DNA of 64,000 bases, taken from an uncultured Cyclobacteriaceae bacterium. Lineage in GTDB: Bacteria; Bacteroidota; Bacteroidia; Cytophagales; Cyclobacteriaceae. The stretch spans positions 62,001 through 126,000 of the forward strand of contig CALSPM010000006.1 in assembly GCA_943788235.1 (NCBI GenBank). Reading direction: 5' to 3'. The notes under the pieces were generated by a model. It did not search any database and had not been told where the DNA came from. It worked only from the letters and a program-made list of their open reading frames with translations. Positions 12,805 to 51,672 of this stretch are shown here, piece by piece; position 1 is the stretch's first letter; each line of letters begins with the position of its first letter. The position numbers and the translations under genes are program-made.

Positions 12805-13779
12805 ATGGCGTATCCATTAAAATTTAAAACCATATATAAAGATAAGATTTGGGGTGGAAATAAGATTAAAAATCTCCTAAATAAAGATTACGGCGACTTG
12901 CCTAACTGCGGGGAGACTTGGGAGCTTTCTGCAGTACCTGGAGACATCTCTGTGGTTAGTAATGGTCTTTGGAGAGGCCAGGATCTTAAATCGCTATTAG
13001 TACAACACGGGGCTGCCATTATGGGGGTAAAATTATATGAGGAATTTGGTACAGACTTCCCTTTGTTGTTTAAATTTATTGATGCAAATCAGGATCTTTC
13101 AATTCAAGTGCATCCAGATGATTCATTGGCCAAAAAACGGCATCAAGGCTTGGGTAAAACTGAAATGTGGTATGTGTTGCAAGCGGATTCAAAAGCCTCA
13201 CTGATTACCGGTTTTAATCGACCAATGTCTCAAGGGGAGTATTTAAAAAAGTTTGAATCAGGAAATTTAATGGAAATTCTGAATCAAGAGCAAGTAGCCA
13301 AAGGGGATGTTTTTTTCTTACCTGCAGGTCGGATACATACCATTGGCAAAGGGTTGTTAATTGCTGAAATACAGCAAACCTCAGATATCACCTATCGAAT
13401 TCATGATTTCGGCCGTACAGATGATCAAGGAAATGAGCGGGACTTACACATTGAAGAATCATTGGAAGCCATCGATTACACCTATCAATCAAATTATAAA
13501 ACCAGCTATGATGAGGAATCCAATAAACGGGTCTCATTGGTTACATGTCCTTACTTTGTGACGAACAAACTGAGCTTAACCGATAAAAAAACATTAAAGG
13601 CACCTCAAATAGCAGGATTCAAAATATATATGTGTATTGGGGGCTCAGCTAAAATAGTTAATGGTGATGAAGAGACTCTTTTAGTAAAAGGGGAAACGGT
13701 TTTGATACCTGCTATGTTATCAACTTATGAAATTAAAGCGGATGCTGAAGTTATACTTTTGGAAACCTATATCGCATAA
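12805..13779 (+). CDS. manA: Mannose-6-phosphate isomerase, class I
   Basis: 324 residues. Interconverts fructose 6-phosphate and mannose 6-phosphate. Cupin metal-site motifs seen: IQVHPDDSLAKKRH and LGKTEMWYVL (about residues 100-125) and FFLPAGRIHTIGKG (about 172-185), with the family start FKTIYKDKIWGG and ETWELSAVPG. This is the short form typical of Firmicutes and Bacteroidetes. Its stop overlaps the lipB ATG (TAATG), so the two are likely cotranscribed. Confidence 0.93.
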   Translation: MAYPLKFKTIYKDKIWGGNKIKNLLNKDYGDLPNCGETWELSAVPGDISVVSNGLWRGQDLKSLLVQHGAAIMGVKLYEEFGTDFPLLFKFIDANQDLSIQVHPDDSLAKKRHQGLGKTEMWYVLQADSKASLITGFNRPMSQGEYLKKFESGNLMEILNQEQVAKGDVFFLPAGRIHTIGKGLLIAEIQQTSDITYRIHDFGRTDDQGNERDLHIEESLEAIDYTYQSNYKTSYDEESNKRVSLVTCPYFVTNKLSLTDKKTLKAPQIAGFKIYMCIGGSAKIVNGDEETLLVKGETVLIPAMLSTYEIKADAEVILLETYIA

Positions 13780-34878: not shown

Positions 34879-35712
34879 TTAATTATTTGGGAGAAGAGTT
34901 ATGTCGGAGTTAATAATACGGGAGCGCTCTATCAATGCTTCTTTTTCAAACTGAGCTATCAAGTTGAATAAGGGCATTTTTTTATCTACCGGTGCATAGT
35001 TAATATAATCTTGAACCAGTAAGCCATCCACCCTTCGCTTATTAATGGCAGATCTAAATCGAACGCCGCCGCCATCGGTAATATAATTATAGGCTAAATA
35101 ATCAACTTCAAAAGTGTTTACATCAATCCAATAGAGATATTCATCTTCAAAATCGTCACCCCCATTTTCTATTTGAAAAGAGACCTTAATTTGATGATAG
35201 CTCTTACCTTTGATCTGTTTTATTCCCTGATCTGTTTTTTTAACCGCGAGATCGTTCAATAGATAGGGTAGCTGAAAAAAATAAAGAACTGAATTTATGG
35301 ATTTACTGTATTTATCTGCCCATTCTTTTGAAACTTCTATGGAGACCCCATTTTTTTTTCGGGAAAAATAGGTACTATTGATCAACATATCTTCTATCAG
35401 TGCGGAGCCATCTTTAAAGGATCTTGTATAAGCATAGGAGGTATCCGATCGCCTTGCACTGTATTGCTTATCTCTAAACGAAAAAGATAGGGTGGCATTC
35501 TCAAAAAGATGTTGCCCATGTGCTATGATCGCTTGATCAATTACTTCTTGGCCTTTGTGGGGAAGTATTTTTTTTTGAGATGAGGGGGCCTTATTTTCGC
35601 AAGACCAAACGAAGAACAATAAAATACCCAAAAGGGCCCAATTTTTTATGATTTGAGTAAGGCTTGGATTTAAGTTTGAAATGCGATTAAGAGAAATCGG
35701 TTGATATTTCAT
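34879..35712 (-). CDS. DUF6503 family lipoprotein
   Basis: 277 residues from the ATG at 35712 (MKYQPISLNRIS); a longer frame opens at 35742. A hydrophobic stretch ending in ILLFFVWSC gives a lipoprotein cysteine near residue 38. DUF6503 motifs: FSFRDKQYSARR, INSVLYFFQLPYLLNDLAV, YWIDVNTFEVDYLAYNY and GGGVRFRSAINKRRVDG. Function unknown, probably envelope-located and lipid-binding-like beta fold (inference). Converges with lgt with a two-base gap. Two A9 runs occur in its coding strand. Confidence 0.8.
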   Translation of the reverse strand: MKYQPISLNRISNLNPSLTQIIKNWALLGILLFFVWSCENKAPSSQKKILPHKGQEVIDQAIIAHGQHLFENATLSFSFRDKQYSARRSDTSYAYTRSFKDGSALIEDMLINSTYFSRKKNGVSIEVSKEWADKYSKSINSVLYFFQLPYLLNDLAVKKTDQGIKQIKGKSYHQIKVSFQIENGGDDFEDEYLYWIDVNTFEVDYLAYNYITDGGGVRFRSAINKRRVDGLLVQDYINYAPVDKKMPLFNLIAQFEKEALIERSRIINSDITLLPNN

Positions 35713-35777
35713 AGGAATGGAAAGCAGATGAATAAGCGTCACCTCAATAAATATAGATCACATTATATTTTAAAAAG

Positions 35778-37176
35778 ATGATAAAGTTAGGCTTATACTT
35801 TCGCTTATCGACAATAACTACCCTGATATTTTTGATAAGTTGTCAAGGCAATGATGATAGAATAGGGGCGATCATACCGGTGCCATCCTCTTTTACCAAT
35901 GTCCTCATTAAGTTACCGATCTCTGAGCTAGAAGAAGGGATTAATAAAATTTTGGATCAACAATTATTCGATGGAGGGTTTGCTTTAAATAAAAAAAAGG
36001 ATAGTTTATTTTTAAAAATTAATCGCAAGAAACGCATTGATATTGAATATTACCAAGGGCGTCTTCATTTGGCTTTACCCTTAAATATCTCGGCGATTAT
36101 CAAATCTCGTCTCTTGGGCGTTTCGATCAGTAATGCAGCAAAGCCTATCAAATTTCAAGCTAAAGCTGAACTGTCTTTGGGGTTAAATATTGATGAACGA
36201 TGGGATCTAGAATTTGATTCAAGATGGGAGACGATTACATGGAATGAACCGCCTAATTTTAAAGTTTTGGGCTTGAAAATCGATTTGGCAGAACTGATCG
36301 AAAAAGAGATTCAAACACATAAAAGGCCCTTAGAAAAAACCATCAATGAGATGCTCAGGGACCAAATTGATTTAAGAACAGCAGTAGAAAGGCTGTATCG
36401 ATCGATCCAAAAGCCATTGAAGGTATCAGCAACGGCACTACCTTTTTATTTTACCAATGAGGCCATCAGTTTAAGGGGTGATTTTGTTAAGCTCGAAATT
36501 AACGACACCTTATTTTTCCAACTTGAGCATCAATCGATATTACGCATAAACGATGTGCAACTCAGCCATCAGCCGCTGGAAGTTTTACCTCTGAGGACCA
36601 ATCCTTTGTCTGACCATACCCAGATCAGTTCTTTTGTTGAATTCAGATTGTCCTTTCTGAAAATGGAGCAGGCGATGGATTCGCTTCTTGGTAGGGAAGG
36701 AGTTAAATCTGGAAGGGATTGCTGCAAAAGTAAATAGGGTGGAGATCAGCCCCCATGAGGGATTTTTGAAATGGAATTTAACGGTGGAGGGGGATATCAA
36801 TGGAATTATTTCTTTGTTTGTAGTGCCGAGTATTGATGAAGATTTGGTGATGCAATTTTCAGCTTTTGACTATGAATTACCCAAAATGGAAGGATGGGCA
36901 GAGATTACAGACTGGGCAATGCATCGGGCCATTGAAAAATATGTAGTGAGTCAGTCAAGCTATGATATGAGTCCTTTTCTCTATTCGCTAGATGATCGCA
37001 TTGCTCGGGGATTGAATAAATCAGTCTTATCGAAAAAAATAGCTCTGGATTTAGATTTGAATACATTCACCCCTTATTCGAAGGGGATGAATGAAGACGA
37101 GATCCAATTTATATTCCAGATCGAAGGAAGGGCCAGCCTCTCAATAAAGGATAAAGTATTTGTCCAGAGGGAGTAA
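35778..37176 (+). pseudogene. DUF4403 family lipoprotein, one frameshift as sequenced
   Basis: The first frame (35778-36737) has a lipoprotein signal ending in FLISC (about residue 22) and the DUF4403 body (IPVPSSFTNVLIKLPISEL, INEMLRDQIDLRTAVERLY, QKPLKVSATALPFYF). The second frame (to 37176) continues with GKELNLEGIAAKVNRVEI and ends with GRASLSIKDKVFVQRE. Reading shifts by net +1 at 36690-36694; skipping one base gives a protein of about 465 residues, the normal size. The protein family has a tubular-lipid-binding-like fold and unknown role. A sequencing insertion is likely, since both halves look intact. Confidence 0.78.
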
Positions 37177-37260
37177 GGATAAATCATTAGATTTTAAAGG
37201 TTAGTCCTTTTTATAGTCCCCTTATTGAAATAAGTTTGTGGCTATTATTATTATGTTTTT

Positions 37261-37335
37261 CGGGATGTGGCGCAGTCCGGTTAGCGCACCACTTTAGGGT
37301 AGTGGGGGCCGCTGGTTCGAATCCAGTCATCCCGA
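37261..37335 (+). tRNA. tRNA-Pro (anticodon AGG)
   Basis: A 75-base cloverleaf. Acceptor CGGGATG pairs with CATCCCG; the C1-G72 pair with A73 is the hallmark of bacterial tRNA-Pro. The anticodon stem CCACT/AGTGG closes loop TTAGGGT, placing A34 G35 G36 and G37. T arm GCTGGTTCGAATCCAGT. Anticodon AGG is unusual for this phylum, where GGG and TGG are expected. Confidence 0.93.
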
Positions 37336-37348
37336 CAAAGAACAGGAG

Positions 37349-37384
37349 AAGCGGATAATACCTAAGGGTGATATCCGCTTTTTT
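37349..37384 (+). terminator. Terminator of the tRNA-Pro gene
   Basis: AAGCGGATA (37349-37357) pairs with TATCCGCTT (37372-37380), followed by a T run. Confidence 0.8.
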
Positions 37385-37575
37385 ATTAACCCATAGAGTA
37401 CCTTCATTCCGAGATGATTATTTAAAATACCAGAATCATTAGGCCCTATAATTGAATCAATAGCTGGGTCACCAATGAAGATGGTATCTGGAACCTAAGT
37501 CCTTTTTCGAAAAATTAAAATCTTATTTGTAAAAGCCAATGTTACCTATCTCAATCAGGATACCTTGCATCTTTC

Positions 37576-38877
37576 TTAAAAGATTTTTAATAATTGTGGG
37601 AAAAGAATCAAGAGGCCTAGAAAGATAATTTGAATCACTACAAATGGTAGGATCCCTATGTAGAGTTGTTTGGTTTTTATTTCTGGGGGGGCGACGCCTT
37701 TGAGATAGAAGAGGGCAAACCCAAAGGGAGGAGTTAAAAAAGAGGTTTGAAGGTTGATGGCCAATAATATACCTACCCACACCAAATCCACACCCATGCT
37801 GGAAAATATGGGGGCGACGATGGGAACGACAATGAATATGATCTCAATGAAATCGATAAAAAATCCTGCAATAAAAACCATGATCATGACTAAAATCAAA
37901 AAACCATTAGGCCCCAAATTAGATTTAGAGATCATCTCTAAGAAAAGTTTGTCCCCCTCAAGCCCTCTAAAGACCAAAGAAAAGGCCGTGGCCCCAATCA
38001 GAATCATGAAAACCATAGAGGTGAGCATGAGCGTTTCTTTGGTAACTGCCCCAAGGATTTTTTTATTCAGTTTTCCTTTATAGGCTGTGAGAATTAAAGC
38101 ACCCATCGCCCCAATTCCAGCTGCTTCTGTGGGAGAAGCTATACCTCCAATAATCGTTCCCAACACCAGAATGATCAATAGTAAGGGCAATAAAAAAGAC
38201 TGAATAATCTCTTTTGAAAATCTTTTATTTCGAAAATGAGTAACTTCTTCTTGGGGCATGGCTGGTGCCTGATTTGGGTGTAACTGGGCATAGATGATCA
38301 CATAAATCATATACATACCAATCAGGCAAAAACCAGGTACGATGGCGGCAAGAAATAAAGCGCCTACCGAAACATTCAATACGCTGGCCAGCAAGACCAA
38401 CACTACAGAGGGCGGGATGATTTGTCCCAAAGTACCCGAAGCTGCTATCGTTCCCATGGCAAGGGCGGGTGCGTAGCCGCGTTTGAGCATGGTAGGAAGG
38501 CTGATCAAGCCCATGGTGACGACCGTGGCACCTACGATTCCTGTAGACGCTGCAAGCAAAGCTCCTACGACGATCACAGATAAAGCCAAACCTCCTTTAA
38601 ATCTACCAAACAATAAGGCCATCGTCTCTAATAGTTTTTCAGCAATGCCCGATTTTTCCAACATCATACCCATGAAAACGAAGAGGGGAACCCCTAAGAG
38701 GACAAAATTCTGCATGGTGCCAAAAATTCTTAAAGAGAGGAGGTAAAAAAAATCAACATCAAATATCCAAACGCCTACAATAACGGCTACACCTCCTAAA
38801 GTAAAGGCGACAGGGTAGCCTATAAGAATCAATATAAAAGCAACTATAAAAAAAATAATAGGCAGGTATTCGTACAT
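37576..38877 (-). CDS. dctM: TRAP transporter large permease (DctM)
   Basis: 433 residues, about twelve transmembrane helices. DctM motifs: LLGVPLFVFMGMMLEKSGIAEKLLE, ASTGIVGATVVTMGLISLP, AASGTLGQIIPPSVVLVLL and ASPTEAAGIGAMGALIL. Sodium-driven uptake of organic acids or related solutes. Its ATG overlaps the stop of dctQ. No periplasmic binding protein (DctP) gene is found on either side, so the substrate and partner are unknown. Confidence 0.92.
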   Translation of the reverse strand: MYEYLPIIFFIVAFILILIGYPVAFTLGGVAVIVGVWIFDVDFFYLLSLRIFGTMQNFVLLGVPLFVFMGMMLEKSGIAEKLLETMALLFGRFKGGLALSVIVVGALLAASTGIVGATVVTMGLISLPTMLKRGYAPALAMGTIAASGTLGQIIPPSVVLVLLASVLNVSVGALFLAAIVPGFCLIGMYMIYVIIYAQLHPNQAPAMPQEEVTHFRNKRFSKEIIQSFLLPLLLIILVLGTIIGGIASPTEAAGIGAMGALILTAYKGKLNKKILGAVTKETLMLTSMVFMILIGATAFSLVFRGLEGDKLFLEMISKSNLGPNGFLILVMIMVFIAGFFIDFIEIIFIVVPIVAPIFSSMGVDLVWVGILLAINLQTSFLTPPFGFALFYLKGVAPPEIKTKQLYIGILPFVVIQIIFLGLLILFPQLLKIF

Positions 38878-39371
38878 TATTTCAACAATGTTTTTATCGA
38901 ATTGAGCATGAGTACGACGCCTTGAAGCATCAATAAACCAAAACCTAGGGGAATGGCTGATTTAATTAAATATCGCGCGGGTAATCCGCCCGGATCTGGA
39001 CTGGTTTCATTGAGTAAAAATGAACTTTGGACAAAACCGATACTTGTGATCAGAGTGATCCAACAAAAAGGGATCAAGAATATTAATGTGCCAATGAGAT
39101 TGATCAGAGCCTTTTTTTTGGAGCCAAAGCGTTGATAAAAAAGGTCCACACGAACATGTCTATCTTGATCCAGTGTCCAGGCAGCACCCAACAGAAACAT
39201 GAGGCCAAATAGATGCCATTCTATTTCAAAAGTTGCTGCAGAGGTGATACTAAAAACATAGCGAAAGAATACATCTGTAACGATGATAAACGTTAAAATG
39301 ATGGAGCTCCAAGAAATAGTTTTTCCAAGAAAATGAGTTAAATATTGGATCCCACCTATGATTGAATTCAT
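38877..39371 (-). CDS. dctQ: TRAP transporter small permease (DctQ)
   Basis: 164 residues with four transmembrane helices and the DctQ signature FRYVFSITSAATFEIEWHLFGLMFLLGAAWTL with DRHVRVDLFYQRF. It pairs with DctM as the membrane part of a TRAP transporter. The stop overlaps the dctM start (TAATG), so they are translationally coupled. Confidence 0.9.
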   Translation of the reverse strand: MNSIIGGIQYLTHFLGKTISWSSIILTFIIVTDVFFRYVFSITSAATFEIEWHLFGLMFLLGAAWTLDQDRHVRVDLFYQRFGSKKKALINLIGTLIFLIPFCWITLITSIGFVQSSFLLNETSPDPGGLPARYLIKSAIPLGFGLLMLQGVVLMLNSIKTLLK

Positions 39372-39504
39372 ACAGGCTAATCTATCGAAAACTACAGCAA
39401 TAAAAAATTATTTCATCTCTCCGTTTTCGACATAAAAAATCTTTTATTGTTTATAAAAGTTAATTAAGCCACAGCAAATGATAAAATTGAATTTCATTCA
39501 CAAG

Positions 39505-39567
39505 TGATGCGCGCACAATTGGCTAAAGATTTTGATATTTATCCGATATCAGTGCACAGCGATCGAA
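39505..39567 (+). pseudogene. Relic fragment of rlmN
   Basis: Gap-free alignment by eye to 47231-47293 inside the intact rlmN gene, 56 of 63 bases identical (first 19 identical: TGATGCGCGCACAATTGGC). No ORF remains. It is directly followed by a rhomboid-gene fragment in the same relative order and orientation as at the intact locus. Confidence 0.85.
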
Positions 39568-39599
39568 CATTAGAAGAGGTCAAACACCGAAATCTAAGA

Positions 39600-39700
39600 C
39601 TTTTTTTTAAATGCTTGATAGAGATTAACCCACAGTAACTCCAGCCATAGGTGCCCATTCTCTTCCTGTATTGGCACCTATGGCTTGTTAAAAAGATAAT
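39600..39700 (-). pseudogene. Relic fragment of a rhomboid protease gene
   Basis: 39626-39700 aligns without gaps to 48409-48483 in the intact rhomboid gene (about three quarters identical by eye). Upstream similarity extends to about 39600 with one small gap. On the minus strand the residue pattern around ISIKHLKK parallels YIKQIQKG of the intact protein. Similarity may continue weakly to about 39790. Together with the rlmN fragment it represents a copied rlmN/rhomboid junction that lost about 1 kb of interior. Confidence 0.75.
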
Positions 39701-40146
39701 CTGTGATTTGTGGTTCTTTTTTGAAAGAATCAACTCCCATTATTATAAAAAATAGCCTCTTTTAATTGTGGATTTTACCTTTGGAAGATGGGAATGAGAT
39801 TTAATTAATATCACGGACCACTTAAATTTATAAATCTGAGAAATTCTTGAAGAGCCTCATAATTTGATACTATTATTTGGATATTATATGTGAAGAAATA
39901 AGTAGTTGATTTCAGCGTATTTGAATGAGAAACATTCATACACTAAATTGCTCAAATTGTAAACAAATTTCTTTTAAAGCGTCGTTCTTTAAAATCTTGG
40001 TTGGAACAGTATCGGATGTTGATCGTTTGTTAAAGGATTGTACAATGACATTATGAATACTAAAACCGCAATAATTTATTGTTTTTTGTGGCAGCGTATG
40101 TCATAATGAGAAAATAAAAGGGGGATTTTTAATCAGTTTAATATCG
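39701..40146. other. Stretch without a convincing gene
   Basis: AT-rich, between the relic and the TonB locus. A 43-codon frame from an ATG at 39927 (MRNIHTLNCSNCKQISF) has a CxxC pair but no recognisable family, and is not annotated as a gene. Confidence 0.35.
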
Positions 40147-40891
40147 ATGAGCCGTATTGCGCTTTTAACACTTTTTTTTATATCCTATTTGCTTACTTAT
40201 GGGCAGTCTCAAGCCCAATATAAGATAGGAAATTTGGATCTCGATGGAAAGCTTAACGTTTGGTATGATAGTATAGTTGGCTTGGAGCGTACCTCTTTAA
40301 TTGATGGTTCCTTTTATCCTTTCCGGACCAAAGCGCTAAAAACGCATGAATATTTTATTAAAAATAAATGGGATTTAGGAACGATAATCTACAAAGGCCA
40401 AGTTTTTGAGGTTAATATGCTCTATAATGTTTTTCAAGATCTTTTGATTATTCAAAACACAACCAATGCAGAGACCATGGTCGAACCACTTAAATTATCC
40501 CAAAACCTGGTGTCGAGATTTGAAATTAATTCAGCATTATTTGTTCGATTAGAGGGAGATGAAGCGCCTGAAAAAACGGGTTTTTATCAATTATTATCAG
40601 ATTATCCTCAGCTCAAAGTTTTTGTGAAAAGAATGAAAAGTCAAACTTTTGAAAACGGGGACGAAGGGTTTCCCTCAGTAGCATTCTATGAGCTAGATTA
40701 CTATTATTTAATGAGGGCCAACAGAAGTATCAGAATAAAAAATAAAAAAGCATTTTTTCAAATGTTTGACCTCACATAAGGTAGAAATTAAAGAATACAT
40801 AAGGGCAAATAATTTATTGATTAAGCCAGGTAATGATGTTGATATCATGATTTTAACTAAGTTTTGTTCGGAGAAAAATTGGGGATTGTGA
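40147..40891 (+). pseudogene. Secreted protein of unknown function, one frameshift as sequenced
   Basis: A signal peptide (MSRIALLTLFFISYLL) begins a protein of about 247 residues. The first frame stops at 40779 after KKAFFQMFDLT; the +1 frame continues KCLTSHKVEIKEYIRANN and ends at TGA 40889-40891. Removing one T from the T6 run at 40752-40757 joins them. I do not recognise the family; it resembles small hypotheticals found next to TonB receptors in Cytophagales. GTGA at its end overlaps the start of the TonB receptor gene, so the two are probably coupled. Confidence 0.6.
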
Positions 40892-43661
40892 GTGGGCGTT
40901 TATTCATTTGGATTATGTTGACTTCCTCCTACTGTTTTGCTCAAACAAGTGCAGTAGTTAACGGCAGTTACAACGGCACACCATTGATATGAAGTTCTAG
41001 TTGAACTAGAACATGAGCTAGACATAAAATTTTGATTATGATCAAAATTGGATTGATACGGTGTTGATCACTGGAGAGTTCAAGGAACTTTCTTTGGAAT
41101 CAGCCTTAGATCTCCTTTTTTTAAATCATGATTTTAGTTATCTCATAAATGGCAAAGAAATTATCCTTTCCTATAAAAAACCCATCCTTTCAACTTTTGC
41201 GATAAGCGGATTCTTTAATGATAAAATAGTATATGATCCGGTTGATAAGGGCTTGATTTTTGAAAAGGAAATAGGCAATGAGATCAATCAAGCAAATAAA
41301 GAAAGCGAAATCTTTGAAATTGGATCAAGAAATAAATTTGAAACTAGCAAAACAGTAACGATTGCGGGATACATCACTCGGAGTGATAATAAAAATCCTG
41401 TAGAAGGTGCTTTTGTATACCTACAAGAGCCATTCACAGGTACAACTACAGATAGTTCAGGTTTTTATGCGTTGAATGTGCCTTCAGGAGAGCATGTTTT
41501 ATTAATCCAATCCATTGAGATGAAAAATACCTATCGTAATATTGTTGCCTTTTCTGAAGGGACAATGAATATTGAGATGGATGTGGACATCATAGCTTTA
41601 AATGAGGTGATGGTTATGTCAGATCGAGATAATAATATCCAACAGACCCAAATGGGGGTCACAAGGTTAGGGATTGAAGAAACTAAAAATTTGCCTACCC
41701 TTTTGGGGGAAAGGGACATCGTTAAGGCAGCGATAACAACTTCAGGAGTCCAAGCAGTTGGAGAGGGTGCCGCAGGGGTTAATATAAGAGGGGGCAAAGC
41801 AGATCAAAATCTTTTTATAATCGATGGGGCTACCGTATATAACACATCACATTTTTTTGGATTTTTTTCTATATTTAATTCAGAGGTTTTAGAAGGCATG
41901 GAACTTTTTAAGGGAGGGATTCCAGCTAAATATGGGGGGCGTCTTTCTTCTGTATTTGACATTACGACTAAAGAACCGAATAAAGAAAAGTATTCAGTCA
42001 AAGCCGGTCTAGGACCCATCACTTCGAGTCTTTTATTTGAAGGGCCTATTATAAAAGATAAAACATCGCTCATGTTGGGGGGAAGAGCAACTTATTCTGA
42101 TTTTGTACTCAAACAAATAAGAAACTCTCCGCTGGGCAATCAAAATGCTGTTTTCCATGATTTGATGATTAAATTGGATCATAAAATAGATGAAAAAAAT
42201 ACACTTTCGGCTTCAAGTTATTACAGCTTTGATAGTTTTCAATTGAGTTCTGACTCCTTACTTGGCTATTCTGATTTCAATTATACAAATGCAAACTTTT
42301 CGGTAAAATGGATGCGAAAATTCAACGATGACTTTAACGGATCCCTACGGCTTACGGGTAGTCAATATCGCTATGATATTGGTTATGACCAGTTGTCATC
42401 GCAGGCATTTGAAATTAATTATGATATCGCCGAATGGGCAGGAACTGTGGATTTCAATTATTATTTAAATGATAAAAATCATTTCAACTTTGGGGGTAGT
42501 ACAAAAAGATATCAGATCAATCCGGGGATTCGAGAACCCTTGGGAGGACTATCTGATATTGGTTATGATAAGATTAACCCCGAACAAGCCCTCGAGTCAG
42601 CAATTTATTTTTCTAATCAATATGATCCTACGAAAAATATTTCACTTTACGCAGGGTTAAGATATTCTTTGTATACTCGGTTAGGTCCTTCAGAATCATA
42701 TCAATATGCCCTTAATAAGCCCTTAAACAAAGATTTTATTACTGATACGCTTTCATATGAAAACGGAACGTCAATGGCTACCTATCATGGTCCTGAATTG
42801 CGATTATCGGGCAGATTTTCTCTTTCAAATCTAAGTTCATTGAAAATGAGCTATAATAGGTCTCGACAATATATTCACATGCTCATTAATTCTGCGTCAT
42901 TAGCACCTACTGACATTTGGAGATTGTCAGGTAAATATTTGGCGCCCCAAATAGCGGATCAATTTTCAATTGGGTATTACAAAAACATCCTTGGAAATGA
43001 TGTTCTAGAGTTTTCAGTTGAGGGCTATTATAAATTAATTGAGAATTTAGTTGATTTCAAAGTAGGTGCAGATTTGCAATTCAATAAAAATATTGAGATT
43101 GATTTGCTTCAAGGAGAGGGCAAATCTTATGGATTGGAGCTATCCGCAAAAAAGTCTGATGGATGGTTTACAGGCTGGTTTAATTATACATGGTCACGAA
43201 GTTTTATCCGTTTAAATGGGAATTTTTCTGAGGAAAGGGTCAATGGAGGGGCTTTTTTCGAGACTAATTATGATAAGCCACATTATTTAAATTTGGTAAC
43301 TAATTATAAATTTACAAGAAGGTACAGTTTATCCTTAAACTTGATTTACTCAAGTGGAAGGCCGGTTACTTATCCCATTGGGAAGTGGAAATTTAATAAT
43401 GCTGAAAGTCTGCTCTATTCGAATAGAAATGCTTTTCGTATTCCTGATTATTTCAGAGTTGACATAGGATTTGATGTAGAAGGGACGCACAAAATAAAAA
43501 AATTGGGCCACTCGTTCTGGACCTTTTCGATTTATAATGTTTTTGGTAGGGATAACGTGTATTCGATTTTTTTTAAGACCGTTGATGGAGATGTTGAGGG
43601 CTACAAAATGACAGTATTTTCAAATCCAATCCCTACAATTACCTTCAATTTCAAAATATGA
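40888..43661 (+). pseudogene. TonB-dependent receptor with STN domain, two 5' frameshifts as sequenced
   Basis: The gene seems to start at GTG 40888 (or ATG 40915) with a signal LFIWIMLTSSYCFAQ. A +1 shift at 40989-40990 leads to EVLVELEHELDIKF, and a second +1 shift in the TTTT at 41030-41033 leads to DYDQNWIDTVLITGEF, from where the long clean frame (41061-43661) runs. Domains: STN (about residues 35-95), CarboxypepD-regulatory-like (TVTIAGYITRSD, then AFVYLQEPFTGTTTDSSGFY), plug (GVNIRGGKADQNLFIIDG, GIPAKYGGRLSSVFD) and a C-terminal beta barrel. The STN domain usually senses via a FecR anti-sigma factor, but none is adjacent. Overlaps the DUF4249 gene by ATGA. Confidence 0.85.
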
Positions 43662-44854
43662 GGTTAGAGATTAAAAATAAAATTCATTTATTCATTTTAG
43701 TTATTACCTTTTCTTGCATAGAACCCTATGAATATGAACTGATTGATGAAGTGGGGCCACCTTTGATCGTGGTAGATGGGTTATTAACCAATGAAGAAAA
43801 AACCCACAGTGTGAGGTTATCCTATACCTCTGGATTAGGAATCACAAATCTAACAACCATTAATGAGGCCACTGTAACCATCGAGAACAGTGACGGTGAT
43901 GTGGTCACATTAACGGAAGGGCAGCCTGGAAATTATGTAACGTCGTCCACCTATCAAGGCATCGTGGGTCAAAGCTATCGATTGAGAATCAAGATAAAAA
44001 ATGGCCATGAATACCTATCTTCTGAAGAAATATTGAATGAAGCGCCTCCCATTGATACTTTATATGGAAGATATGTGCAATTACCCTCAGAGAAGAGTGC
44101 GGAATTATTAAATGGAGTCCAACTATTTATAGAAAGTGATTGGAATGATTATGAAGTAAGTACTTTCAGATATATATGGGAAGAGACCTATGAATGGAGA
44201 GTTCCTAATCCTTCAGAATACGTTTATGTACCTAAGACAAGGGAAGCAATATTAAGAGAAGAGACAGATTTAAAAAGTGTGGAGGTATGCTTTAGAGGAG
44301 ATACTAGTACTGCTTTATTATTAGGATCTGCCTTTTCTTTAAATAACTCCAAACTCACGGAATTCCCTGTTCATTTCATTAATGAGAATGATCAGAATTT
44401 ATCTTTTAAGACAGCAGTGAAGGTTAAGCAATATGCGTTGTCTAATGCTACTTATCAATATTATAAACGACTCAAGGAAAACAATGAATCTGGAGGCTCA
44501 CTATTTGACAAACAAAAAGGTAATATTTCTGGAAATATAAAATCGTTAACAGATCCAAAAGAATTGGTGATGGGAAACTTTGACGTTTCAGGAGTATCCT
44601 CTAAAATGTCATTTTTTGAACCTAAAACTTTTGTCTCTGATGGATTCAATGTTAATTATTGGCCTAAGAATTGTGGTATGGATATAGATTCTATTTCAGC
44701 ATTTGCCTTAGAAGGTTATGTTGCTGATGATATAAATGCAAAAAGAGTAATATGGACTTATGATTCGGACTTGCGACTATATTTTATGACATCGGAAAAC
44801 TGTTCTGACTGTAGAATATTAGGCAATATTGAGGTGCCAGATTTTTGGGAATGA
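43658..44854 (+). CDS. DUF4249 domain-containing lipoprotein
   Basis: 398 residues. A signal with lipoprotein cysteine (LFILVITFSC, residue 20) is followed by the DUF4249 core: PPLIVVDGLLTNEEKTHSVRL, TVTIENSDGDVV and GQSYRLRIKIKNGHEYLS. DUF4249 proteins accompany TonB receptors in Bacteroidetes and are thought to be surface-exposed partners; ligand unknown. Overlaps genes on both sides by ATGA, forming one compact operon. Confidence 0.85.
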   Translation: MRLEIKNKIHLFILVITFSCIEPYEYELIDEVGPPLIVVDGLLTNEEKTHSVRLSYTSGLGITNLTTINEATVTIENSDGDVVTLTEGQPGNYVTSSTYQGIVGQSYRLRIKIKNGHEYLSSEEILNEAPPIDTLYGRYVQLPSEKSAELLNGVQLFIESDWNDYEVSTFRYIWEETYEWRVPNPSEYVYVPKTREAILREETDLKSVEVCFRGDTSTALLLGSAFSLNNSKLTEFPVHFINENDQNLSFKTAVKVKQYALSNATYQYYKRLKENNESGGSLFDKQKGNISGNIKSLTDPKELVMGNFDVSGVSSKMSFFEPKTFVSDGFNVNYWPKNCGMDIDSISAFALEGYVADDINAKRVIWTYDSDLRLYFMTSENCSDCRILGNIEVPDFWE

Positions 44855-47053
44855 GATCTTTTAGAAACTATATAGCCCTTTCATTACTTTTTTTTCAATT
44901 ATCTGCTTTTGGTCAAGGTAATATTCAAGAAGAAGTATTGCTTGTAACGAACAAAAATCAATTTTTGACTGGGGAGAATATATATTTTCAAGGGTTTGTT
45001 ACCAGTTCTAAAACAGGAAAGCTATCAGGTTTGAGTTCTCTACTTTATATTGAACTATTGGATGAGAATCAAAATCCTATATACCAAACCAAGCTGACCT
45101 TGGAGCAGGGATTGATAGTAGGAGATTTATTTATTTCTACTTTAATTAAGTCTGGAAATTATGATTTAATTGCGTATACCCGATGGATGAAAAATAGGAA
45201 AGACTTTTGTCGAGTTCCGATTAGCATTTATAACCCTTTTGAAATTTATACTCCGCCAATTATTACAAATTTGCAAATGAGATTTTATGCTGAGGGAGGG
45301 AAATTAGTTATGGGAGTGAGTAATAAAGTAGTTGTTCGTTATTCAGACCATCAGGAACAAGGAGTCTCGTTTAAAGGGAAATTAGTGGATGACCTAGGTG
45401 AGAAACAAGCCGATATCAATTCACTAGATGGGCTGGCTCAATTTTCTTTTACTCCTGAGAAGGGTAGAAGTTATCAAATGATTTATACTGAAGGGGCTGT
45501 CTTTAAATTTTTAGACCTCCCCGAGGCTTGTGAAAATTGCAGTACGATTACGATGCAAGAAATGCCGAACTCATATACTTTTAAACTCATAGATAACCAT
45601 GCCAAGAGTCAATTAGATATAACATTGTTCAGAATACGTGATCGCCACAATATATATATTGAAAAGAGTAATGAGCCCCGAGAGCCAAGTCAATATAAGA
45701 AAAGTCAGTTTACCAAACAAATTATTGAGGGCTGAGATCTTAGATAACCAAGGGGCGATAATGGCTGAAAGATTATTTTATAACGGGGGACTTTCTGACC
45801 TTTCTGAGCAACAGCTCGTATCTGTGCCTAGAGGCCATATTGAATTTTCTGTTTTAGATTCAAATTTGAGTGTCAGTACGATGATGGTGAATAAAAAATC
45901 AGAGCAACCAAGGTCATTACGACTCAATCAAATTAATAGTAAGCTAATATCTCCACCCCTTCAGGCCAAGTGGACAAAATATACCGATATTAATACATGG
46001 TTATTGTTTTCAAAGGTCGATTGGCCTAAAACTTCCTCATTAAAATCTTTTGATTACCTACCTGAATATAGAAATGACTTACTGCAGGGGTTTATTAAAG
46101 CGAATGGAGATCAGTCAGTTGAAAATCAAATTATTACATTCTCAGTGCCAGGGAAAGAAGAAAGCTTAAGTTTAGCTAAGTCAGACAGTGCAGGGGGATT
46201 CTTATTGAATATCGAATATATTGATGGGGACCGAGAGGCTTATATAAGCGTACTTAATGATGATGCTAATCTATTTGAGATCAAAATAGAGGATGAGTTT
46301 TATAAGGAATATCCGAAATTAAAGAGTTGGCCTTTGTCTTATGATTCGCTCTTGGTTAAGGAAATTGTGGCCAATAGCATACACTTACAAGTTGAAAATG
46401 CTTATCATCATTTAAAAAAAGACCGGGTATTAACTTCGAAAAAAAAAGAAAAGAAAGAAATTAATTTTCGGATCTTTAATGTTGATGATTATACACGATT
46501 CCCAACCGTCAGAGATTCTTTTATTGAATATATTCCCGAGATTGGAATCAGTAAATCCGATAATGATTATGATTTTGAAATTCGCTGGCCAGAATCATTA
46601 AAAGGCTACAGACCTACAGGGATCTATTTGGTACTCTTTGATGGGGTGGTGGCAAGTCCTCAAGAAGTATTGTCCTACTCCCCGTATAATATAAAAACGA
46701 TAAAAATTCTTGCAGAACGCTATTATATAGGTCCAGTCAAGCTTGATGGGTTGATTTTTTTTACGACCATGGATGAGGATTTATATGGATTTGAGCCTCA
46801 TGGATTGAATTATATTTACAAAGGGATGGAAAGTGAAAAACAATATTATACTCCTAATCATAATGATCCTCGAGAGATAAGGATACCCGATCGGAGAACC
46901 ATGCTTTTATTTGAGACAAAAAGTCATCCAGATTCGAATACTAAATACGAATTATTTACTTCAGATATACCTGGTGAATATGATGTAATGTTAATGGGCC
47001 TCTCAGCTTCCGGGGAATTGACTCAGGAGATCCGCACCTTAGTGGTAGAATAA
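44851..47053 (+). pseudogene. Secreted MG2-like domain protein of the TonB locus, one frameshift as sequenced
   Basis: The ATG at 44851 opens a signal peptide (MRSFRNYIALSLLFFQLSAFGQG). A macroglobulin-like region (LLVTNKNQFLTGENIYFQGFV, YDLIAYTRWMKN) covers about residues 25-120. The first frame stops at 45735 after QIIEG; the +1 frame carries RAEILDNQGAIMAERLFYNGG and continues to 47053. One skipped base at 45727 gives a protein of about 733 residues. The long C-terminal half has no domain I know. Position as last gene of the TonB/DUF4249 operon suggests an envelope role with them. Confidence 0.72.
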
Positions 47054-47067
47054 TGGGCAATTGCCCC

Positions 47068-47075
47068 TAAATTTG
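47068..47075 (+). promoter_or_regulatory. Candidate -7 promoter box of rlmN, next to its start codon
   Basis: TAAATTTG fits TAnnTTTG and ends four bases before the rlmN ATG at 47080. Use of this box would give a leaderless transcript. Confidence 0.4.
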
Positions 47076-47079
47076 CATT

Positions 47080-48111
47080 ATGAAGCAAGACGTTCGTAAG
47101 TTGACATTCGATAAATTGAAAGATTACATATCGGAAACAGGATTACCGGCGTTTCGTGCAAAACAAATTTGGGAATGGATATGGGTTAAGTCGGCACATA
47201 CTTTTGAGGAAATGTCCAATCTCTCCCTATTGATGCGCGCACAATTGGCCAAAGATTTTGATATTTTACCGATCTCAGTGCAGACCGATCAAAAATCGAA
47301 TGATGGAACTATAAAATTGGCTTTTTCACTTCATGATAAAGCTCTAGTGGAGGGAGTTTTGATTCCAGTAGATGATCGAATGACGGCCTGCGTTTCCTCT
47401 CAAGTAGGGTGTTCGTTGAGTTGTAAGTTTTGTGCCACGGGTTATATGGACCGTAAGCGAAATTTAGATCCAGCAGAGATTTATGATCAAGTGGTTGAAA
47501 TAGACAAGCAAGCCAAAAGGCATTTTGATACGCCTCTAAGTAATATTGTTTTTATGGGGATGGGAGAGCCTTTACTTAATTACAAGAACGTATTACGGAG
47601 CATTGAGCGGATTACTGCCACAGATGGACTAAATATGTCGCCTAAGCGAATCACGGTATCCACTGCAGGTATTTCCAAGATGATCATCAAGCTGGCTGAC
47701 GATCAAGTCAAATTCAACTTGGCCTTGTCTCTGCACGCTGCCAATGACGTAAAAAGGAATCAAATCATGCCTATCAATGAAACCAATACATTGAAGGTGT
47801 TGAAGGAATCATTGCTTTATTTTTATCAAAAAACAGGAAATCAAATTACTTTTGAATACATCGTTTTTGATAATTTTAACGACGGTCTCGAGGATGCAGA
47901 GGAGTTATGGCATTTTGTTAAATCAATACCTTCCAAAATCAACATTATTGAATACAATCCGATCGCTGAGGCCAAATATCAAAATACAACTGCTGACAAG
48001 TTGGAGCAATTTGCAGATTTTTTGAAATCCAAGAAGCTCATCGTCAATATACGAAGGAGTCGAGGTAAAGATATTGATGCTGCCTGCGGACAGCTGGCAA
48101 ATAAAAAGTAA
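47080..48111 (+). CDS. rlmN: 23S rRNA (adenine2503-C2)-methyltransferase RlmN
   Basis: 343 residues, a radical SAM enzyme that methylates A2503 of 23S rRNA and A37 of some tRNAs. The radical-SAM cluster is CSLSCKFC (about 114-121), FMGMGEPLLNY and the conserved cysteine in AACGQLANK near the end (methyl-transfer cysteine) and CVSSQVGC are present. Full length. Converges with the rhomboid gene with a two-base gap; a degenerate copy of this junction is at 39505-39700. Confidence 0.96.
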   Translation: MKQDVRKLTFDKLKDYISETGLPAFRAKQIWEWIWVKSAHTFEEMSNLSLLMRAQLAKDFDILPISVQTDQKSNDGTIKLAFSLHDKALVEGVLIPVDDRMTACVSSQVGCSLSCKFCATGYMDRKRNLDPAEIYDQVVEIDKQAKRHFDTPLSNIVFMGMGEPLLNYKNVLRSIERITATDGLNMSPKRITVSTAGISKMIIKLADDQVKFNLALSLHAANDVKRNQIMPINETNTLKVLKESLLYFYQKTGNQITFEYIVFDNFNDGLEDAEELWHFVKSIPSKINIIEYNPIAEAKYQNTTADKLEQFADFLKSKKLIVNIRRSRGKDIDAACGQLANKK

Positions 48112-48113
48112 GT

Positions 48114-49040
48114 TTATTTTTTACTGGCGTTAAAAAGTTTCTGTTTTTCCTCTTTGGTCAGACTCTCATATCCTTTTTGTGAAATCTTATCCAAAATGGC
48201 ATCTATTTCATCTTGTTCGGAAGTGTGAGTGGACAGGGGCGATGTATCGTGATTTGCTTCAGCAGCTGCTTTCGCTTTTTTTCTGGGCTTGCTTCTGTGG
48301 GTGACTTTAATTTTTGAGGATTGTCTGAAAAAGCTTTTGAAAAAATCAATAATTTGAAGAATCCAACCACCGAGATCCTGGCCTTTTTGTATTTGCTTGA
48401 TGTACACATAACCCATAGCAGCCCCTGCTAAATGTGCCCATTCGCCTCCTGCATTCGCACCTACGGTTTGTGAAAAAGAAAGAATGATATAAAAAAAGGC
48501 AATATATTTAATCTTTACGGGTCCAATCAAAAGTAAATGGAATGTATAATTAGGCAGTAAAGTGGCTGCCGCCGTAATGATGGCATACACCCCAGCTGAA
48601 GCGCCAAGCATTCTGGAAATTTGCTGACTTTCATAAAAGGGGAGAGTGTTGTAAATGATCAAATAAAGCAGTCCACCAGCAAGACCACCAAGCACATAAA
48701 GTGAAATTACTTTGTCACTGCCTAAATATTCTACGATAAGTTTCCCAAACCAATAGAGGACCAACATATTGAATAAAATATGGAATAAGTCAGCATGTAA
48801 AAAAAAGTAGGTAATGATAGACCACGGCTGAAATAAAAATGAATTGAGATCGGAGGGAAGCATCAATAACTCCTCTAGAGACCTATAGATTTCTGCTCCA
48901 CCACTCACTTTAAGAAAGATGCTCAAGGTCAGCATTACTAAGAAAACAATAACATTTATGATTATGATCTGCGCAATGGCATTGTTGGGCTTGTTCCAAG
49001 CATTTTTGAATTCATCAAGCAGATTTTCACTTGTATTCAT
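48114..49040 (-). CDS. Rhomboid family intramembrane serine protease
   Basis: 308 residues, about six transmembrane segments and a polar C-terminal tail. FLHADLFHILFNMLVLYWFG is the L1 region, MLGASAGVYAIITA the catalytic serine (about residue 148) and GEWAHLAGAAMGYVYI the catalytic histidine (about 205). Last gene of an operon after mutL and another rhomboid gene. Confidence 0.9.
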   Translation of the reverse strand: MNTSENLLDEFKNAWNKPNNAIAQIIIINVIVFLVMLTLSIFLKVSGGAEIYRSLEELLMLPSDLNSFLFQPWSIITYFFLHADLFHILFNMLVLYWFGKLIVEYLGSDKVISLYVLGGLAGGLLYLIIYNTLPFYESQQISRMLGASAGVYAIITAAATLLPNYTFHLLLIGPVKIKYIAFFYIILSFSQTVGANAGGEWAHLAGAAMGYVYIKQIQKGQDLGGWILQIIDFFKSFFRQSSKIKVTHRSKPRKKAKAAAEANHDTSPLSTHTSEQDEIDAILDKISQKGYESLTKEEKQKLFNASKK

Positions 49041-49042
49041 AA

Positions 49043-49843
49043 TTAGTAAGGTTTAATCGTTTTGTTATTGATCCAAATTCGAATAAGGATGAAGGCGATC
49101 AGCATGCCGCTTAAATGCGCCAGGTGCGCCACATTATCACCTTCTGAACGATTTAATTCGGAATAAAGTTCTATGGCTCCGTAAATAAAAACCAAATATT
49201 TGGCTCGAATGGGAATAGGTGGAAATAAAAGCATGAGCTGCAAGTTAGGAAATAGCATCGCAAAAGCCATCAATATGCCATAAACTGCCCCTGAGGCACC
49301 AACCATTGGAATATTCGTTTTGAGATCAAATATCTGTGAGACGGCACTCATCGTTTGTTTTATGTAATCTGGATCTTGTGGATTATCATAAAAGCCATCT
49401 GAGAGCTCGGCCAATCCTTGCAAATTGAATCGACGCGACTTGTGTTCAGAAATGAATAAGCTAAAGTCATCGGGATTTGGATTATCGAGATAGGTCTCCG
49501 TATCTGCTTTCAATTGATATTGCTCTATAAAATTAGCACCGCCAAAAAGCAAGCCTGCTCCAATACCACAGGCCAGATAGAAGATGAGGAATTTTTTTTC
49601 CCCGAAGGTTTGCTCTAATAACGGCCCAAAAACAAAAACGGCAAACATATTTCCCAATAGATGGCTGAAGTTGGCATGAATCCACATATAGGTGATGAAC
49701 TGATGTAGCGCGAATTGATCAGAAAAAACTACACGCAATCCCAACCAAGAGGATAATGGCAAATTCAATAAAGATTGCAAAACAAAGATCCCCACATTCG
49801 CAATTAAAATGTACTTGACCGTAGGGGTTAATCTTCCAAACAT
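49043..49843 (-). CDS. Rhomboid family intramembrane serine protease
   Basis: 266 residues. MWIHANFSHLLGNMFAVFVFG is the L1 region, MVGASGAVYGILMAF the catalytic serine and VAHLAHLSGMLIAFILI the histidine helix. A polar loop of about 60 residues (about 110-175) sits between the second and third helices. Two bases separate it from the next rhomboid gene and five from mutL. The pair mutL-rhomboid-rhomboid is a recurring Bacteroidetes arrangement. Confidence 0.9.
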   Translation of the reverse strand: MFGRLTPTVKYILIANVGIFVLQSLLNLPLSSWLGLRVVFSDQFALHQFITYMWIHANFSHLLGNMFAVFVFGPLLEQTFGEKKFLIFYLACGIGAGLLFGGANFIEQYQLKADTETYLDNPNPDDFSLFISEHKSRRFNLQGLAELSDGFYDNPQDPDYIKQTMSAVSQIFDLKTNIPMVGASGAVYGILMAFAMLFPNLQLMLLFPPIPIRAKYLVFIYGAIELYSELNRSEGDNVAHLAHLSGMLIAFILIRIWINNKTIKPY

Positions 49844-49848
49844 ATTTG

Positions 49849-51672
49849 TTAATTGAAAAGTGAAATCATTTTATCTATACTCAAAACTACAAAAGTTGCC
49901 TGACCATCCGGCGTATAATTGGGTTGTTTGCAGGCAAATAATAAGTCAAATATTTTTGAAATTTCTTCATCAGCCAATTTTTCGCTGATTTTTATGGCCG
50001 TACGTTTTGCCATAGAACGTGCTAAATTTTCGGTTTTATTGAGCGAAATTTCCGATTGATTCATCTTAAATTGTTCGATCAAATCTTCAAAAAGGTCTTT
50101 TTCAGACAGTTTACCAATTTCTGGAGGTGTGCCATTGATGACGATACAGTTTTTACCAAATGGTTCAAATTCAAAACCAAGCATTTGAATTTCATCCTTT
50201 AGCGATAGGACCAAATCAAAATCTGCAAGATTGAGAGAAAGTTGACTAGGAAATAAGCAGGACTGTGAAACACCTTGATTTTGACGATAATGTTCAAGAT
50301 ATCGTTCATAAAGAATCCTCTCATGTGCCGCTCTTTGATCAATAAGTACCATACCGCTCTTTACTTGACGCAAGAGGAAGCGGTTATGTATACACAGGGT
50401 TTGAGGATTGGGCGAACTATTTTGATGATCCGAATGAGGATCACTGTTTAGCAGCATCCGATCTTGCTGTTGAAGTTCATGTTTCGCTTGTTCCCTACTG
50501 ATCAGTTCTTCATTATGTGCATTCTCGTACAATAATTGCCAATTTTTTGATGAACTATTGAAGTTTGGGATATTTTTGAATTGGGTATATTTTTTATCTG
50601 ATTCAGATACCTGATCAGCCCCATTTGGTGGAGAAAATAAGGCAAAATTAACGTCTGTATCGAAGTCTATAGAGGGCGCTACATTTGAAGTGGCCAAAGC
50701 TTGGCGTACGGCGGCCACAATTACGCCATACAGTAAACGGTCATCGGTGAATTTGACCTCTGTTTTGGTAGGGTGAACATTTACATCGACGTCTTTGGGA
50801 TCAATTTCGATAAACAATATATAAAAGGGATGAGCCTCTGGTTTTAAAAGCCCCTCAAAAGCTTTTAAAACGGCATGATTGAGATAATGATTTTTGATGA
50901 AACGACGGTTTACAAAAAAGAATTGTTCCCCTCTGGTTTTTTTTGCAAATGTGGGCTTACCTACATAGCCTGAGATCCTAACTGTAGGCGTTTCTTCTTG
51001 GCAAGGGATGAGTTGCTGCTGATAATTATTTCCGAAAATTTGGACAATACGTTTGCTGAGTTTGCTGGGCTCTAAGTTGTAAACTTCCTCATTATTGTGG
51101 TGTAATGAGAATTTTATATCTGCATGAGCGATTGAAATCCTTTGAAATTCATCATGAATGTGTCGGAATTCTACTGGATTACTTTTTAAAAAGTTTCTAC
51201 GTGCAGGAAGGTTGAAGAAAAGATTTTTAATGGACAAGCTCGTGCCATTTTGCATGGCTATGGGTTCTTGTTTGCCGAGGTCACTGGCTTCAACCTTGAC
51301 CAACAGGCCTAACTCAAGATCATCTGTTTTTGTTTTTAATTCGACTTGTGCGACCGCTGCAATAGAGGCGAGTGCCTCGCCTCTAAAACCCATTGATTTT
51401 AGTCTAAATAAATCTTTGGCATCTTTTAATTTGGAAGTCGCATGTCTCATAAAGCACATGATGGCATCTTTTTCAGACATTCCCCTGCCGTCGTCCACCA
51501 CTTGAATAAGGGTTTTTCCAGCTTCCTGTATGTATACCTTAATTTCGTTAGCACCAGCATCTATACTGTTTTCGAGCAGTTCTTTTACGGCCGAGGCAGG
51601 CCTTTGAACGACTTCTCCAGCAGCAATTTGATTGGCAATATGATCAGGCAGTACATGGACGATGTCTGGCAT
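49849..51672 (-). CDS. mutL: DNA mismatch repair endonuclease MutL
   Basis: 607 residues. The GHKL ATPase N-terminus shows ELLENSIDAGANEI, VDDGRGM and GFRGEALASIAAV (motifs I-III), then NVHPTKTEVKF (about 295). The C-terminal dimerisation/endonuclease domain has DQRAAHERILYE, where the canonical motif is DQHAAxERIxYE (His replaced by Arg, as is common in the phylum), and CKQPNYTPDGQ. Nuclease activity is therefore likely but not proven. Overlaps the small upstream gene by TAATG. Confidence 0.95.
   Translation of the reverse strand: MPDIVHVLPDHIANQIAAGEVVQRPASAVKELLENSIDAGANEIKVYIQEAGKTLIQVVDDGRGMSEKDAIMCFMRHATSKLKDAKDLFRLKSMGFRGEALASIAAVAQVELKTKTDDLELGLLVKVEASDLGKQEPIAMQNGTSLSIKNLFFNLPARRNFLKSNPVEFRHIHDEFQRISIAHADIKFSLHHNNEEVYNLEPSKLSKRIVQIFGNNYQQQLIPCQEETPTVRISGYVGKPTFAKKTRGEQFFFVNRRFIKNHYLNHAVLKAFEGLLKPEAHPFYILFIEIDPKDVDVNVHPTKTEVKFTDDRLLYGVIVAAVRQALATSNVAPSIDFDTDVNFALFSPPNGADQVSESDKKYTQFKNIPNFNSSSKNWQLLYENAHNEELISREQAKHELQQQDRMLLNSDPHSDHQNSSPNPQTLCIHNRFLLRQVKSGMVLIDQRAAHERILYERYLEHYRQNQGVSQSCLFPSQLSLNLADFDLVLSLKDEIQMLGFEFEPFGKNCIVINGTPPEIGKLSEKDLFEDLIEQFKMNQSEISLNKTENLARSMAKRTAIKISEKLADEEISKIFDLLFACKQPNYTPDGQATFVVLSIDKMISLFN

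What the first reader, a model, noticed from the sequence alone, without database searches (positions are those of the whole stretch)
39505..39700. Degenerate second copy of the rlmN/rhomboid junction found 8 kb away
Seen: 39505-39567 aligns gap-free with 47231-47293 in rlmN (56 of 63 bases identical), and 39626-39700 aligns with 48409-48483 in the rhomboid gene (about three quarters identical). Order and orientation match the intact locus, where the two segments are 1.1 kb apart; here they are 58 bases apart. Inference: an rlmN-rhomboid duplicate lost about 1 kb and is decaying. The remaining identity suggests either a recent event or horizontally gained DNA. rlmN and rhomboid genes are rarely duplicated, so the history (tandem duplication or integration) is of interest.
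Basis: seen in the sequence. Interest (0 to 1): 0.65.

Follow-up and report, generated by a model that had tools for sequence, protein, structure and literature searches.

The report
Scar beside a swapped gene cassette
A decaying scrap of two neighbouring genes (rlmN and a rhomboid protease gene) marks the edge of a 7 kb gene cassette that a marine bacterium appears to have exchanged for a relative's version, so it is most likely a footprint of gene exchange rather than a working gene.

Summary
39505-39570 copies rlmN 47231-47296 (58 of 66) and 39569-39697 copies rhomboid 48352-48480 (about 75%). The pieces abut; 1,055 bp between them are missing. It is a decaying pseudogene: in the rhomboid part, differences spread evenly over codon positions. 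A relative about 95.7% identical (G003) carries it, so it is not an assembly error and not very recent.

The fragment lies at the left edge of a gene cassette (~39.7-47.03 kb: small protein, TonB receptor, DUF4249, two unknowns) that groups with relative G001, while both flanks group with G007/G008; AU tests reject the opposite grouping in all three segments. Other relatives carry an allelic cassette without the fragment, or only cassette stubs. Another contig of the same assembly (C9) joins a broken allelic first gene to the fragment's tail.

Best reading: imported DNA inserted beside the resident cassette duplicated rlmN-rhomboid, and deletions left this scar. The route is inferred. Oddity: the fragment has a perfect 13-bp stem where intact copies pair 6-7 of 13, unlikely by chance: template switching, or selection. 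A known kind of event, unusually well resolved.

The parts
39505..39570 (+). relic of rlmN (copy of 47231-47296)
   Evidence: 58 of 66 identical, BLAST E 9e-20; 0 of 500 shuffles
39569..39697 (-). relic of the rhomboid gene's 3' half, catalytic-His helix region (copy of 48352-48480; the gene is on the - strand)
   Evidence: about 74-76%, BLAST E 2e-16; differences with G000 at codon positions 1/2/3 = 13/9/11; the helix assignment is from recall
39643..39685 (.). perfect 13-bp inverted repeat (39643-39655 / 39673-39685, 17-base spacer) formed inside the rhomboid relic
   Evidence: 13 of 13 pairs in both fragments, 6-7 of 13 in 8 of 8 intact rhomboid genes; RNA fold of 39560-39700 + strand z -4.7, 0 of 200 shuffles as good
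39698..40146 (.). DNA between the fragment and the first cassette gene; 39896 onward is alignable with G001, 39698-39895 of unknown origin
40147..47053 (+). exchanged cassette: 210-aa unknown (40147-40779), TonB receptor with CarbopepD_reg_2 and Plug (41061-43661), DUF4249 (43658-44854), unknown (44845-45735), unknown (45638-47053)
   Evidence: Pfam; tree conflict with the flanks and identity profile; right boundary near 47025
38877..39371 (-). dctQ, TRAP transporter small subunit; left flank, of recipient ancestry
   Evidence: Pfam DctQ 9.1e-23; flank tree
47080..48111 (+). intact rlmN, source gene of the first piece
   Evidence: Pfam RlmN_N and Radical_SAM; single full-length copy in the own genome
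48114..49040 (-). intact rhomboid gene, source of the second piece
   Evidence: Pfam Rhomboid 7.9e-24 and DUF6576

Best explanation
The fragment is the scar of a cassette exchange. Between dctQ and rlmN the genus carries a five-gene TonB-receptor/DUF4249 cassette. In the ancestor of G000 and G003, a divergent version with G001 affinity (about 39.7-47.03 kb) entered next to the resident one. Most likely one end joined by homology near rlmN and the other by illegitimate joining inside the rhomboid gene, so that a copy of rlmN and a truncated rhomboid gene came to lie in front of the new cassette: dctQ - resident cassette - rlmN - rhomboid' - new cassette - rlmN - rhomboid. Deletions then removed the redundant DNA. 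In the window/G003 line one deletion ran from the dctQ upstream region to rlmN codon ~51 and another from rlmN to rhomboid (1,055 bp); in C9 one ran from the old first gene to the tail of rhomboid'. What remains in the window is 193 bp of pseudogene that drifts neutrally. Shown: the homology, the decay, sharing with G003, the foreign affinity of the cassette, the position of the fragment at its left edge, the C9 joint. Inferred: the composite intermediate, the order of events, the joining mechanism.
For: Fragment and decay. Collinear G003 copy. Cassette exchange: identity to G007/G008 mostly 90-98% in the flanks and about 62-84% in the cassette, to G001 mostly 84-94% in the cassette; cassette tree puts G000+G003+G001 together 100/100 and rejects G000+G003+G007+G008 (p-AU 9e-126), right and left flanks reject G000+G003+G001 (p-AU 5.6e-6 and 4.8e-4). 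Right boundary at about 47025 by 75-base steps. Fragment nearest the recipient clade: rlmN part 83-89% to G000/G003/G007/G008 against 68-76% to G001/G004/G009. C9: allelic first gene (88-89% to G007/G008/G002) with no ORF of 80 aa or more, joined to window 39677 onward at a short shared stretch; C9 shares the last 20 bases of the fragment (19 of 20). G001 has the G001-type cassette with no room for the fragment (24 bases).
Against: No genome with the composite was found; only 10 genomes of the genus are held. C9 could be another strain or a later recombinant rather than a sister deletion. The tree of the 193 columns is mostly unresolved: fragment plus recipient clade 64/94; grouping the fragment with G001 is not rejected at 5% (p-AU 0.067), nor with G004 (0.073); at 8 of 13 informative columns printed the fragment shares a state with outgroups rather than with the clade. 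The recipient clade itself is not strongly supported in the flank trees (66/93 and 86/96). The right boundary lies upstream of rlmN, not inside it, so homology-anchored joining there is not demonstrated. 39698-39895 has no convincing source.
Confidence: 0.7

Rival explanations
1. The fragment arrived inside the imported DNA: the donor already had a truncated rlmN-rhomboid copy in front of its cassette.
For: The fragment and 39698-40146 are contiguous with the cassette and, apart from G003, found in no other genome; at 8 of 13 printed columns it has states of the outgroups; grouping with G001 not rejected (p-AU 0.067).
Against: G001 lacks it; overall identity is highest to the recipient clade; the likelihood is 8.9 units lower when it is grouped with G001; the DNA left of 39471 is of the resident type.
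Confidence: 0.2
2. An ordinary in-chromosome duplication of rlmN-rhomboid that decayed and has nothing to do with the cassette exchange.
For: Both source genes lie 8 kb away in the same order and orientation.
Against: The fragment is at the edge of the exchanged segment, occurs only in the two genomes with the exchange on this flank background, and C9 joins the old cassette to the fragment's tail.
Confidence: 0.1
3. The relic has been put to use: the perfect hairpin between the divergently read dctQ and the first cassette gene is a regulatory RNA or DNA element kept by selection.
For: 13 of 13 pairs against 6-7 of 13 in 8 of 8 intact genes; fold z -4.7 on the + strand; random substitution gives 13 of 13 in 0-1 of 2,000,000 trials from three real ancestors and 34-74 of 2,000,000 from a best-case ancestor; 80 bases around it identical in G003, chance about 0.01 at the local rate.
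Against: A longer identical run of 115 bases (39838-39952) exists in the same spacer, so the identity is not special to the hairpin. The - strand fold is only z -2.0. No terminator-like site was found in 39300-40300 and promoter-like sites are at the shuffle level, 6 against 5.2; no Rfam match but the tRNA in 36000-50000. C9 has lost the left arm and most of the fragment. Template switching makes perfect stems without selection (PMC8794818, abstract). The test was chosen after seeing the stem.
Confidence: 0.1
4. Assembly artefact (chimeric join).
For: The window lies in a 14-contig assembly with a variant contig of the same region.
Against: The same fragment with the same joint is in G003, an assembly about 95.7% identical here.
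Confidence: 0.02

Closest known systems
Homology-facilitated illegitimate recombination (HFIR) and single-crossover duplication
   Same: Insertion of divergent DNA at one side of a homologous anchor, with truncated duplicated DNA at the other; PMC3240628 (passages read) reports 3-10 bp micro-homology at most HFIR joints and, in E. coli conjugation, mostly duplications (56 of 60 clones) of the homologous segment.
   Different: Here inferred from relics in uncultured genomes; the homologous anchor is not shown (boundary at about 47025, upstream of rlmN) and two or more later deletions are needed.
Sequential module displacement in Vibrio cholerae T6SS clusters
   Same: A horizontally exchanged module leaves remnants of the former module next to the new one; PMC5361080 (passages read) proposes an HFIR-like event.
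   Different: The cassette codes for a TonB receptor and DUF4249, not effector-immunity genes; the remnant here is of flanking housekeeping genes and is non-coding, with no retained function shown.
Template-switch mutation of quasi-palindromes
   Same: An imperfect inverted repeat has become a perfect one; PMC8794818 (abstract and start of text read) describes template switching making or mending perfect stems.
   Different: At least two steps seem needed here (changes in both arms); no direct proof of a single event.

Membership tests
Decayed gene duplicate (pseudogene fragment) | Significant homology to an intact paralogue, incomplete | tested here: met
Decayed gene duplicate (pseudogene fragment) | No coding constraint | tested here: met
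   rhomboid part: differences 13/9/11 over codon positions 1/2/3 against 4/2/22 and 2/4/16 for intact G001 and G004. The rlmN part is too short to tell (0/4/4). No ORF of 100 aa or more in 39372-40146
Horizontal cassette exchange at a shared locus | Segment whose tree conflicts with both flanks | tested here: met
Horizontal cassette exchange at a shared locus | Identified donor | tested here: not met
   G001 is the nearest held genome but only 84-94% identical over most of the cassette
HFIR-type insertion | Homologous joint at one end | tested here: inconclusive
   boundary at about 47025, at the start of high homology to G007/G008
HFIR-type insertion | Illegitimate joint with micro-homology at the other end | tested here: inconclusive
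   short shared stretch at the C9 joint read by eye; the joint at about 39697 cannot be read because 39698-39895 has no known source
Mobile element (insertion sequence, integron, CRISPR-like repeat) | Repeat family elsewhere in the genome | tested here: not met
   rlmN-rhomboid DNA matches only itself and this fragment; stem arm exact at three places in G000, two of them this stem (the list was cut)

The most novel reading that the evidence does not exclude
A dead piece of a protease gene has turned into a new structured element: template switching built a perfect 13-bp stem inside the relic, in the spacer between the divergently read dctQ operon and the swapped cassette, and the hairpin now acts in regulation or as a fragile site that directs further deletions (the C9 joint lies in its right arm).
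Probability: 0.1. Interest if true: 0.5.

Novelty: new member of a known kind. Interest (0 to 1): 0.33.

Why it matters
It gives a readable record of how an outer-membrane receptor cassette is exchanged between wild, uncultured marine Bacteroidota: old allele, new allele, deleted allele, and two different scars within ten genomes of one genus. Such scars show that exchange can pass through an additive intermediate that is then trimmed by deletions. The perfect stem born in a pseudogene is a small natural case for testing how hairpins arise.

Tried and rejected
Source of 39698-39895: compared with rhomboid, rlmN, dctQ upstream DNA and the same spacer of G001, G004, G007, G008, G009 and the C9 insert. 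Only G004's spacer stood out, and with dinucleotide shuffles 1 of 500 reached its score (G009 71 of 500, G008 119 of 500), with many gaps: left open.

Ancestral empty site: G004 and G009 look empty between dctQ and rlmN, but the ~0.4 kb there holds stubs of the last cassette gene (scores 179 and 171 against shuffle maxima 49 and 54) and of the first (51 and 56 against 41 and 50), so they are deletions, not the ancestral state.

Terminator, promoter, known RNA: and a search for the Bacteroidota-type promoter (motif from recall) gave nothing above background, beyond one -7-like site at 39776.

Special conservation of the hairpin: weakened by a longer identical run in the same spacer.

A paper on an rlmN-rhomboid duplicate: one search with four terms (rlmN, rhomboid, pseudogene, duplication) gave 0 papers. 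This covers only that open library and those terms. 'UBA4465' gave two papers, seen as listing only.

Full report
What was checked. The two alignments exist as described: 56 of 63 and 57 of 75 identical bases, and 0 of 500 dinucleotide shuffles of either piece reach the observed score (BLAST E 9e-20 and 2e-16). The rhomboid part starts at about 39569, so the pieces abut and 47297-48351 is missing between them. The own genome holds no other match to the rlmN-rhomboid stretch at E <= 0.01, and one full-length rlmN.

Where it lies. The fragment is in the spacer between dctQ (38877-39371, - strand) and a 210-aa unknown gene (40147-40779, + strand), so both neighbours are read away from it. Then come a TonB receptor with CarbopepD_reg_2 and Plug domains, a DUF4249 protein and two proteins without Pfam match, then rlmN, rhomboid and a second rhomboid gene. 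The nearest named records hit by dctQ carry titles such as Flammeovirgaceae bacterium UBA4465 and uncultured Cyclobacteriaceae, all MAGs in their titles.

Decay and age. G003 is collinear with the window over 18.4 kb at 95.7% and has the fragment with the same joints. The two fragments differ by 1 of 66 bases in the rlmN part and 5 of 126 plus 2 gap columns in the rest, like the spacers on either side (94.7% and 94.4%). Against the intact genes of G000 and G003 the fragments are 88-89% (rlmN part) and 73-76% (rhomboid part) identical. In the rhomboid part the differences with G000 fall 13/9/11 on codon positions 1/2/3, while intact G001 and G004 differ 4/2/22 and 2/4/16. That is what a sequence without coding constraint gives. 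The rlmN part has 8 differences, 0/4/4, too few to judge. So the duplication is older than the G000/G003 split and not recent.

The slot is variable. G001 has the window's cassette type (alignable from 39896 on, 87% over 11.8 kb) and only 24 bases between this and the dctQ upstream match, so no fragment. G007, G008, G006 and, as far as its contig goes, G002 have an allelic cassette of the same gene order, about 76% identical in its best part (79% in the 900 bases of G002, 72% in G006), and no fragment. G004 and G009 have about 0.4 kb between dctQ and the rlmN region, with significant stubs of the last and first cassette genes. G005 could not be read. A direct search of the fragment against ten fetched loci agrees.

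The cassette was exchanged. In 300-base steps the window is mostly 90-98% identical to G007/G008 on both flanks and about 62-84% in the cassette, where G001 is mostly 84-94%. Trees: for 41400-44650, G000, G003 and G001 form one group at 100/100 and G000+G003+G007+G008 is rejected (p-AU 9e-126). For 47400-50900 and 37600-39300, G000+G003+G001 is rejected (p-AU 5.6e-6 and 4.8e-4); there G000+G003+G007+G008 is in the best tree with 66/93 and 86/96, not starred. The right boundary is near 47025, just before rlmN, in 75-base steps. The left boundary is at the fragment.

The second haplotype. Contig C9 (14,622 bases) of the same assembly parallels the window from 35397 to 41213. From dctQ it runs into a first gene of the allelic type (88.0-89.4% to G007, G008, G002 over 424 columns) that has no ORF of 80 aa or more, and at 13101 passes into window 39677 onward, sharing the last 20 bases of the fragment (19 of 20). 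Its dctM region is nearest G003 and G000 (96.3% and 95.2% against 92.5% or less for the others), while dctQ alone is nearest G007 (95.7%). So C9 is of the same lineage at dctM and still holds a piece of the resident cassette. The first 400 bases of C9 are identical to the window, as for a strain variant in an assembly graph; whether C9 is from another cell cannot be told.

Reading. An additive insertion of the new cassette behind the resident cassette, rlmN and a truncated rhomboid gene, followed by different deletions in the window/G003 line and in C9, accounts for the fragment, for its place, for the two joints and for the resident relic in C9. It is close to what has been proposed for module displacement in Vibrio T6SS clusters (PMC5361080, passages) and to the duplications and HFIR events seen in E. 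coli conjugation (PMC3240628, passages). The intermediate itself has not been seen. The fragment's own tree is weak: fragment plus recipient clade 64/94, not rejected when held with G000+G003 (p 0.487) and barely not rejected with G001 (0.067) or G004 (0.073). Of 13 informative columns printed, 5 support recipient-clade states and 8 have states also found in outgroups, so the source may have been a sister of the sampled clade.

The stem. 39643-39655 and 39673-39685 are perfect reverse complements (13 of 13 in both fragments), where the same columns pair 6 or 7 of 13 in 8 of 8 intact genes. The arms differ from G000, G007, G004 by 7, 7, 6 of 26 bases. Simulated random substitution reached 13 of 13 in 1, 0 and 1 of 2,000,000 trials from these, and in 34-74 of 2,000,000 from a best-case ancestor put together from all alleles. 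Chance is therefore unlikely even in the best case, though the test was chosen after seeing the stem. Template switching is known to perfect such repeats (PMC8794818, abstract and start) and is my preferred cause; at least two steps seem needed. For function there is the + strand fold (z -4.7) and 80 bases identical in G003, but a 115-base identical run occurs elsewhere in the same spacer, the - strand fold is weak, and no promoter, terminator or known RNA stands out.

Verdict. Real, ordinary in kind (pseudogene scar of a cassette exchange), with an unusually complete set of relatives to read it from.

Noticed in passing
L016 (G000 contig C9) 1941-10211; window 37261-37340: C9 holds about 8.3 kb absent from the window directly behind tRNA-Pro(agg) (window 37261-37336), with ORFs that look by eye like a dehydrogenase, an SDR and a sugar ABC transporter: a possible genomic island at a tRNA. 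The 14-base overlap 37326-37339 is exact at one end only.
   Followed up: partly
39643-39685: Perfect 13-bp inverted repeat formed inside the rhomboid relic; imperfect in 8 of 8 intact genes.
   Followed up: yes
40765-41030: The window has single-base length differences from C9 and from G003 at the end of the 210-aa gene and before the TonB receptor ORF; C9 has a 267-aa version of the first gene. Assembly errors or real frameshifts.
   Followed up: partly
L021 about 7.8-8.6 kb and L022 about 7.0-7.5 kb: G004 and G009 keep only stubs of the first and last cassette genes between dctQ and rlmN.
   Followed up: yes
G004:C96:1888-2910 (L034): A second rlmN-like gene, 52% identical, on another contig of G004; not examined further, may be foreign to that genome.
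   Followed up: no
42400-42700 and 43900-45100: Within the cassette, identity to G003 falls to 89-93% against 95-99% around, perhaps further recombination patches.
   Followed up: no
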